Positions 1,058 to 3,525 of a stretch of DNA of 64,000 nucleotides are shown here, piece after piece. How positions within the stretch are numbered: the stretch's first letter is position 1; each line of letters starts with the position of its first letter. Made by a program: the position numbers and the translations under genes. The notes under the pieces were generated by a model. The model was not told the DNA's origin. It saw only the letters and a list, made by a program, of their open reading frames with translations, and did no database searches. This stretch comes from a bacterium (GTDB lineage: Bacteria; Oederibacteriota; JAAXVQ01; JAUVAV01), in NCBI GenBank assembly GCA_021108215.1, contig JAIORK010000014.1, forward strand, positions 1 to 64,000, read 5' to 3'.

Positions 1058-1786
1058 TCACCACCCGACAAAGCTGACAAGTATCTCAATAGTTGGACTA
1101 TTCACATCCCAATTACGGATGCCCTCCACAAACTCCACACCCAATGAAAAATGATAGCCAAGGCCCAATGACAACATCAGTGAATCTAAAACCATGAAAT
1201 CAGCATACACACTTGGCTCGATAACAATCGTATCATTACCAGTATCATGACTATGACCATTCATTTCTTGAAAATTATAAAATATACTTGTAAACCCTAA
1301 TAATACCTGAGGCCGTAGTTTTAGTTGATCCAGCAAGGGGATGATTATTCCGGTCTCCATTCCCGCATAGATAAGATTGATATCAACAGATTGACCGGAA
1401 AATTCCAAAATAACATCTGGATAAAACAATCCGTGTACAGCACCGCCAATATACACCTGTTCATTAATGACCCAACCGCCATGGATCGTTGCCAAAAAAG
1501 CCGGATCATGAAAAAAATGTTTCACCTTCCCGCCCACGCTTATATACCCTGAGTTATGTATATCACCCTGCAATGTTACCGGATTCGGTAATGTGTCAAT
1601 AAAAGGATATGCTGGGCTGATTGTGTTTGAAGGAGATGTATTAGTTTGTTCCAGCACAGCCGGTTCACTTTGCACAACAGGTGTATTCATGGCATGATCA
1701 ACTACCTGTTCTGAAGCACAAATGGATATTGCGCTCACAAAGATGCTCAATCCAATGATAATAAACAAACCAGAATATCGTATCAT
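1058..1786 (-). CDS. Putative outer-membrane beta-barrel protein
   Basis: The product has 242 residues with a signal peptide (MIRYSGLFIIIGLSIFVSA, cleavage near CASEQ). A proline/serine/threonine linker follows (~30-60), then alternating hydrophobic strands such as VYIGGAVHGLFY, LRPQVLLGFTSIFY and LSLGLGYHFSLG. The chain ends in an aromatic residue (VGW), which fits a beta-signal for barrel insertion. AGGTGG lies about 8 bases upstream of the ATG. The fold is inferred from strand pattern and C-terminus only; no specific family is recognised. It follows the split barrel gene, 11 bases after its stop, so it is probably in the same transcript. Confidence 0.6.
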   Translation of the reverse strand: MIRYSGLFIIIGLSIFVSAISICASEQVVDHAMNTPVVQSEPAVLEQTNTSPSNTISPAYPFIDTLPNPVTLQGDIHNSGYISVGGKVKHFFHDPAFLATIHGGWVINEQVYIGGAVHGLFYPDVILEFSGQSVDINLIYAGMETGIIIPLLDQLKLRPQVLLGFTSIFYNFQEMNGHSHDTGNDTIVIEPSVYADFMVLDSLMLSLGLGYHFSLGVEFVEGIRNWDVNSPTIEILVSFVGW

Positions 1787-1796
1787 TACAATCCAC

Positions 1797-3005
1797 CTAA
1801 AGTATTCGATAAATAATACCTATTGAGAAAAACCAATTATAGTCATTTTCTTTCAGAGCAGACTCCACATAGTCATTGAGTTGATCAAGTGTCAAGCTCG
1901 ATCCATCCGGTTCCGCGGTTTCTTCAAAATGATAATTAAAATACCGTTCTATTTTCAGTCCCCCACCCAATGATGCATGAAGACTCATATTCGGATTAAG
2001 GTGGTGCTCTGTCGAAAGTGAGATTGTTTGATTAATATAAAATTTGTTGTACTTATAGATCACATAGCGCCCTCCAGCTGCTGCAAGATCCTCTCGTGGC
2101 GAGATGTCATAATAAGCATCAATTCCAAACCGACTCGAAACAGACCAACGCGTATTGTGGTAATACTTCAAGCGTGTCTGGATGTCACTTTCTATAAAAG
2201 TCCAACTCACACCATATCCTTCATCGATATCACCTTGTGAAGTATCAACCCAATCAACACGCATACTCGCACCAAACTGCCATTGCCTGGAAAGCGGATT
2301 TTCATAATTCATTTCATATCCCAAATAAAATGATTGATCCCATGTTTCATCTTTGAACATATAATGAAGCGCATCAAATTCATCATATTCTTTTTTCTCT
2401 GAATTCGAAACATCCAGTATCGCGCCGGCTCGACCATTGATCCGTAAGCCAAATCCACGCTCATCAAAAGACAAATGACGATAAGTGTCATCAATGATTA
2501 AAAATGCATCAAATTCATTGGCAGCAACATACTCGTTTAAAACAAGATACTTCATAATTGCCTTTAACGCGGTCATTGTTTTCAACCGATAATCAAAAAT
2601 ATATGCTTTACTCGCAAAGGTTATGATCTCAGCCAGCTCGATAATTGTGGTTTTATCCAAAGATTTTTTCAGAACACCAGCATCACTTAGATCTGCAATA
2701 ATCTGCATAACTTGATACGCATATTTTCCTTCAAAAATACGCCCCCAGCCAAAACGAAATGTCTGATGAACATCAAAATCATACGTTTCTCGCTCATATT
2801 TCCAAAAATAATCTGATGTTAGTGATTTGACGTGACCACACTCGATGCTTTCTAGTGCACTGATATCCGTCTCCAATCCCAATGCCCATGGTCCCGGATA
2901 AAAATCCAGTTTCACGTTTGGAAGGATTCTCACATTGAAAAGATCATATATATATATAGTCAGAACCGTAGATATCTTCAGACATTCGTCTATGTTCCGT
3001 TTCAT
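1797..3005 (-). pseudogene. 3' part of a frameshifted or phase-variable outer-membrane protein gene
   Basis: This open frame encodes ~400 residues but has no signal peptide. The ATG at 3005 has no ribosome site and overlaps, out of frame, the end of the exported protein encoded at 2944-3360. The first plausible residues of its own frame are YDLFNVRILPNV, immediately after a run of TA repeats. The body has barrel-like alternation (FYLGYEMNYENP, MRVDWVD, FSIGIIYRIL) and ends in hydrophobic/aromatic residues. I read it as the C-terminal ~385 residues of the same protein as the upstream piece, now one dinucleotide out of register. Adding one TA unit or removing two would restore a single protein of ~520 residues. 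It could also be a sequencing or assembly error in the repeat. Confidence 0.6.
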
Positions 3006-3360
3006 ACGATGTATTTAAATGATGCGTATACGCTATTGCCAGTGGAATGTTCGTACTTATTTCCAGCTCCTTTGTCATGTTAGAATAATGAATTGCGGGT
3101 CCCAAATCAGTGTTCAAATCTGATTCAATATCGCTTGCACGAAAAATCGTATCACGATAATCTGTATAACCTGATTCAGCTTGATCTTTTGATATCTGGC
3201 CTGAGGACTCTACGTTCATTTGAAATTGCTGAGTCTCAACAAACGGCATATCCCGGATCTGAAATCCATCCAAATTCCAGGTCGAATCATCAGCCAATAT
3301 TGGATAAGGAAGACAAATTAAAGTGTATATTACAACAAACCCCAGGCATCGCTTGAACAC
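2944..3360 (-). pseudogene. 5' part of the same split gene: signal peptide plus N-terminal domain
   Basis: This frame encodes 138 residues from a GTG with GGAG 8 bases upstream. Residues 1-23 are a clear signal peptide (FKRCLGFVVIYTLICLPYPI, then LADDS). The rest is acidic and polar, and the frame stops right after GSDYIYI, inside a TA dinucleotide run at 2946-2958. The end is abrupt and a second frame takes over with barrel-like sequence, so I treat it as the 5' half of a broken or switchable gene. In the present register the cell would make a short exported fragment with no membrane domain. Confidence 0.6.
2946..2958. repeat. TA dinucleotide tract (6.5 units) at a reading-frame break
   Basis: Thirteen alternating A/T bases lie exactly where the exported N-terminal frame stops and the barrel frame opens. 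With 13 bases the frame ends at TGA; with 15 or 9 bases the two frames join. Short dinucleotide tracts inside coding sequence are known sites of slipped-strand mispairing. Confidence 0.85.
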
Positions 3361-3525
3361 CAGTATTTCTCCATTTCCACTATATTCCTGACCATACTAC
3401 TCAATTTTGCCATGGAATTACAGCTCATTTTTTTGAGCGTTTCCTTTCGGGCTACATTTATTTAGACTACACCCGCGTCTCTTTCCATGCACTTTTTTTT
3501 AAAAAAATAACCGATCATGGCGCAT

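What the first reader, a model, noticed from the sequence alone, without database searches (positions are those of the whole stretch)
2944..3005. TA dinucleotide tract switches an outer-membrane protein gene in and out of frame
An exported N-terminal frame ends at TGA formed by the tract, and the frame that takes over is barrel-like with no start signals of its own. With 13 bases the gene is off; one extra TA unit or two fewer would make one ~520-residue protein. This is the layout of a slipped-strand phase-variation switch on a surface protein, in a group where phase variation is little described.
Basis: partly seen in the sequence, partly recalled or inferred. Interest (0 to 1): 0.72.

Follow-up and report, generated by a model that had tools for sequence, protein, structure and literature searches.

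The report
Outer-membrane gene broken at TA repeat
In an uncultivated bacterium of the Goldiibacteriota/FCPU426 group, a gene for a predicted outer-membrane protein is knocked out of frame exactly at a 13-base TA repeat; such a break can reverse by repeat slippage, but that it works as an on/off switch is not shown.

Summary
The tract is 13 bases (window 2946-2958, minus-strand gene). The upstream frame (GTG start with GGAG, signal-like N-terminus) ends at a TGA that borrows the tract's last T, and a barrel-like frame takes over without a ribosome site. Two relatives carry the gene as one uninterrupted protein (532 and 537 aa), each matching both halves and followed by the same partner gene: one broken gene, not two. 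The break must lie in a 71-base overlap holding the window's longest dinucleotide run, so a length change in the tract is the likely cause. A second case, in another genus, is a secreted VWA/FlgD-type gene broken at a 13-base TA tract; an intact congener (82% DNA identity) differs there by one TA unit. Against a dedicated switch: about 17 other TA runs of 13 or more in the phylum sit in intact genes, some conserved between species and not surface-related; six to seven units is the lower edge of accepted dinucleotide switches; the homologues lack the tract; no other tract checked in this genome breaks a gene. Most likely a slippage frameshift, reversible in principle; true phase variation is plausible but unproven without reads or strains.

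The parts
2946..2958 (-). 13-base perfect TA tract at the frame break
2944..3360 (-). N-terminal frame: GTG start, signal-like N-terminus (MFKRCLGFVVIYTLICLPYPILAD...), 138 aa, ends at a TGA sharing one base with the tract
   Evidence: matches N-termini of intact homologues
3369..3372 (-). GGAG Shine-Dalgarno-like site 8 nt before the GTG
   Evidence: read from sequence
1797..3014 (-). C-terminal frame, open stop to stop; after the tract it codes for a helical stretch and a beta-barrel-like region; no ribosome site before its ATG at 3005
   Evidence: homologues
1058..1786 (-). Partner gene, 242 aa, signal-like N-terminus, starts 10 nt after the C frame ends, own AGGTGG site; gene order conserved in both homologous loci

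Best explanation
This is one gene for an exported, probably outer-membrane beta-barrel protein of about 520 residues, first of a conserved gene pair, out of frame because a TA tract in a variable, unconserved region changed length by slipped-strand mispairing. In the sequenced state the ribosome stops at TGA after 138 residues and the barrel is not made. Because the lesion is a repeat-number change it can revert by the same mechanism, so the locus can behave as a low-rate on/off switch. Shown: single intact homologues, frame break at the tract, no other lesion. Inferred: slippage as cause, reversibility, outer-membrane location. Not shown: that switching occurs or is selected.
For: Intact 532- and 537-aa homologues align end to end with both halves (30% and 28% identity over 505 and 538 columns; E 2e-66 and 4e-63 for the read-through; N half alone 3e-9 and 4e-9). 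Partner gene conserved next door. Break confined to 71 bases holding the window's longest dinucleotide run. No other stop or frameshift in about 520 codons. The second case, G012 against G023, differs by exactly one TA unit at the tract and is otherwise in frame. The YIYI segment is not conserved in the homologues, so the run is not imposed by protein sequence. Barrel-like strands in the model and barrel proteins as top, weak fold matches.
Against: One genome only; no reads or strains. Six to seven dinucleotide units is the lower edge: the Campylobacter PhasomeIt study used six or more, the Neisseria study eight or more and saw no dinucleotide length changes (PMC6321876, PMC5953494). Same-length TA runs are kept in frame between species. 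The structure model is poor (mean pLDDT 53, N half unmodelled).
Confidence: 0.6

Rival explanations
1. Plain loss of function: a one-off slippage frameshift, fixed or drifting, in a dispensable gene; a young pseudogene, not a switch.
For: Homologues were found in only 2 of the 44 other phylum genomes, so the gene is dispensable across the group. The tract is not conserved in homologues. In the parallel G012/G023 pair the intact congener has only an 8-base run, as expected if runs come and go. No other checked simple-repeat tract in this genome breaks a gene.
Against: No second lesion in about 520 codons; downstream partner gene intact.
Confidence: 0.22
2. Sequencing or assembly artefact: the real majority allele is in frame.
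For: The assembly is in 67 contigs and its named relatives are metagenome bins; consensus over a mixed tract can pick either length.
Against: The tract is a perfect dinucleotide run of only 13 bases, within reach of short reads, and a random one-base error would tend to spoil the repeat pattern; similar runs elsewhere in the genome and phylum are in frame.
Confidence: 0.12
3. Programmed recoding: slippage by two bases of ribosome or RNA polymerase on the TA repeat makes some full-length protein from this allele.
For: A P-site tRNA on AUA can re-pair with AUA two bases back, which gives the downstream frame, and the site directly precedes a stop (both read from the sequence).
Against: Neither homologue has the tract or a frame break; slippage on dinucleotides is not a common bacterial recoding mode (own knowledge). 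No stimulatory element was looked for.
Confidence: 0.05

Closest known systems
Intragenic dinucleotide phase variation, e.g. the AG tract in the Mycoplasma mycoides type III methyltransferase gene mmyCImod (PMC3498834); H. pylori adhesin SabA (PMC2715451; its CT unit is from own knowledge)
   Same: Dinucleotide tract inside the coding region; stop codon at the tract in the off state; for SabA also an outer-membrane protein
   Different: Unit TA, not AG or CT; shorter (6.5 units against 10-12 AG); no second allele seen here
Haemophilus influenzae hifA/hifB (TA)9-11 tract (PMC2651432)
   Same: Same repeat unit, surface structure
   Different: That tract is in a promoter and changes spacing; this one is in the reading frame and is shorter
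Secreted VWA/FlgD_ig protein of G012 (L041), broken at a 13-base TA tract, same phylum
   Same: Exported protein, same tract length, frame broken at the tract
   Different: Unrelated gene, other genus; the intact congener differs by one TA unit

Membership tests
SSR-mediated translational phase-variable gene | Repeat tract within the reading frame, unit not a multiple of three | tested here: met
   13-base TA run at the junction of two frames of one gene
SSR-mediated translational phase-variable gene | Tract length above the usual cut-off for dinucleotides (6 or 8 units) | tested here: inconclusive
   6.5 units: passes 6 (PMC6321876), fails 8 (PMC5953494)
SSR-mediated translational phase-variable gene | One intact gene in one tract state, truncated in another | tested here: met
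   Read-through matches intact homologues end to end; the present state is truncated. The intact state of this very gene was not observed.
SSR-mediated translational phase-variable gene | Tract length varies among cells or strains, reversibly | not testable with these tools
SSR-mediated translational phase-variable gene | Tract kept in homologues (usual but not required) | tested here: not met
   Homologues in G003 and G006 lack any dinucleotide run of 4 or more units; they are only about 30% identical, so this is weak
Outer-membrane beta-barrel protein | Signal-like N-terminus and amphipathic strands to the C-terminus | tested here: inconclusive
   Signal-like N-terminus by eye; barrel-like strands in a low-confidence model; weak fold matches to barrels, none at E 0.001 or below; no Pfam or NCBIfam family

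The most novel reading that the evidence does not exclude
Goldiibacteriota use TA-tract slippage to switch several exported proteins, the window gene and the G012 VWA protein being two observed off states; this would be a phasome of intragenic TA tracts in an uncultivated candidate phylum.
Probability: 0.15. Interest if true: 0.55.

Novelty: new member of a known kind. Interest (0 to 1): 0.33.

Why it matters
If the tract varies within populations, it would be a slippage-switched surface protein in an uncultivated lineage, testable directly from existing metagenome reads; most well-studied cases are in host-associated bacteria (own knowledge). If it does not vary, it is an ordinary frameshift and a caution that a repeat at a frame break is not by itself phase variation.

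Tried and rejected
Two separate genes: rejected, since homologues are single proteins. Paralogues in the genome that could recombine: none found. Other simple repeats as a sign of a phasome in this genome: GA and CA runs of 6 units absent; of eight poly-G loci of 9-11 none is at an evident frame break; TA runs of 10-14 elsewhere are intergenic or in intact genes in the loci examined. Known family or solved relative: none. Flanks in viral contigs: none. Literature on phase variation in Goldbacteria: the top papers of the search named only phase variation, so absence is not established. A possible third case, L035 in G011 (a four-helix-bundle-like gene with a 13-base TA run at a frame change), was set aside because an inserted repeat seems to have broken that gene already.

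Full report
Observation. The minus-strand gene at 3360-1797 is open in one frame from GTG 3360 to a TGA at 2946-2944, and in the next frame from about 3014 to the TAG at 1797. The TA run is 2946-2958, 13 bases, and supplies the T of the TGA. It is the longest dinucleotide run in the window; the next is 9 bases. The genome (3.56 Mb, 67 contigs, 97% complete) has four loci with (TA)6 or longer; the other three are intergenic. A fifth, a 12-base run in the AT phase, lies in frame in an intact LamG-type surface protein gene (L023). Markov expectation for a run of 13 is well under one per genome.

One gene, not two. A search of 98 genomes (own and relatives) with the C-terminal half found two homologues; both are single ORFs, of 532 aa (L003, G006) and 537 aa (L004, G003). 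The N half alone matches their N-termini (E 3e-9 and 4e-9) and the read-through matches end to end (E 2e-66 and 4e-63). Downstream of each lies a homologue of the window's next gene (E 2e-39 and 2e-19). A search of all 45 phylum genomes held added none. Named records of the homologues are metagenome bins of Candidatus Goldiibacteriota (JAGVPM010000127.1) and candidate division FCPU426 (JAFGIQ010000281.1), which places the window in that phylum.

What the protein is. No Pfam or NCBIfam family passes its cut-off, and there is no relative in the PDB by sequence. The model from three sequences is poor (mean pLDDT 53), but its better part shows four helices and then about eight long strands to the C-terminus; Foldseek's best matches are outer-membrane barrels (autotransporter EspP, OmpT/Pla, TonB-dependent receptors), none below E 0.001. 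With the signal-like N-terminus this supports, but does not prove, an outer-membrane barrel.

Cause of the break. The two open frames overlap by 71 bases, so the frameshift must lie there; a codon-usage likelihood trained on 21 long ORFs of the window puts it between 2949 and 2995. That stretch holds the longest dinucleotide run of 64 kb. No other lesion exists in about 520 codons. Slippage of the TA run is the simplest cause; it is inferred, not observed.

A parallel case. TA runs of 13 or more were searched in the phylum and the loci were read by ORF. About 19 lie in genes. All but two of these are in intact frames. The two exceptions are the window gene and G012:C4:177254-177266 (L041), a secreted protein whose VWA domain is split (profile 1-47 on the upstream frame, 60-137 on the downstream one) and which ends in a FlgD_ig domain. 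Its congener G023 has the gene intact (467-aa open frame); the aligned DNA is 82% identical and, at the tract, differs by exactly one TA unit. So one-unit TA changes do break exported genes in this phylum. The intact congener has only an 8-base run, so the longer run there is not an old, maintained feature. L035 (G011) also shows a frame change at a 13-base run, but in a gene that an inserted repeat seems to have broken already, and is not counted.

Against a dedicated switch. In-frame TA runs of 13 are found in the same enzyme gene (GH94/GT36-like, named from memory, not tested) in two families of the phylum (L040, L050; 74% DNA identity) and in a membrane protein gene in two species of one genus (L038, L066; 91%), with equal length each time. 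Such runs are therefore stable enough to sit in ordinary genes. Both broken genes are exported, but so, by eye, are several intact ones (L031, L057, L062, L064, L067), so two of two is not significant. Published cut-offs for dinucleotide switches are 6 units (PMC6321876) and 8 units (PMC5953494, which saw no dinucleotide length changes in Neisseria). In this genome GA and CA runs of 6 units are absent and none of eight poly-G loci of 9-11 evidently interrupts a gene.

Comparison. It works like an intragenic dinucleotide switch of the Mycoplasma mod AG-tract type (PMC3498834). Membership needs variation among cells or strains, which could not be tested. The TA tract best known for phase variation, hifA/hifB, acts in a promoter (PMC2651432), not in a frame.

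Verdict. Observation confirmed; interpretation partly supported. A slippage-type frameshift in an exported gene: a candidate phase-variable gene, not a demonstrated one.

Noticed in passing
L041:442-1844 (G012:C4, tract 177254-177266): Secreted VWA/FlgD_ig protein gene broken at a 13-base TA run; congener G023 is intact and differs there by one TA unit.
   Followed up: yes
L035 about 1205-1700 (G011:C60): Four-helix-bundle-like gene apparently interrupted by an inserted repeat that carries a 13-base TA run; the frame changes across the run.
   Followed up: partly
L072:1404-1648 (G040:C25): Cluster of long TA runs (13, 16, 33 and 21 bases) in apparently non-coding DNA near a contig end.
   Followed up: no
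all 45 phylum genomes: Matches to the C-terminal FlgD_ig/secretion-tail region of the L041 protein occur in every phylum genome, up to 42 places per genome among those scored; possibly a common secretion signal of this phylum.
   Followed up: no
L063:2030-2048 (G004:C352): 19-base TA run in frame inside a small membrane protein gene.
   Followed up: no
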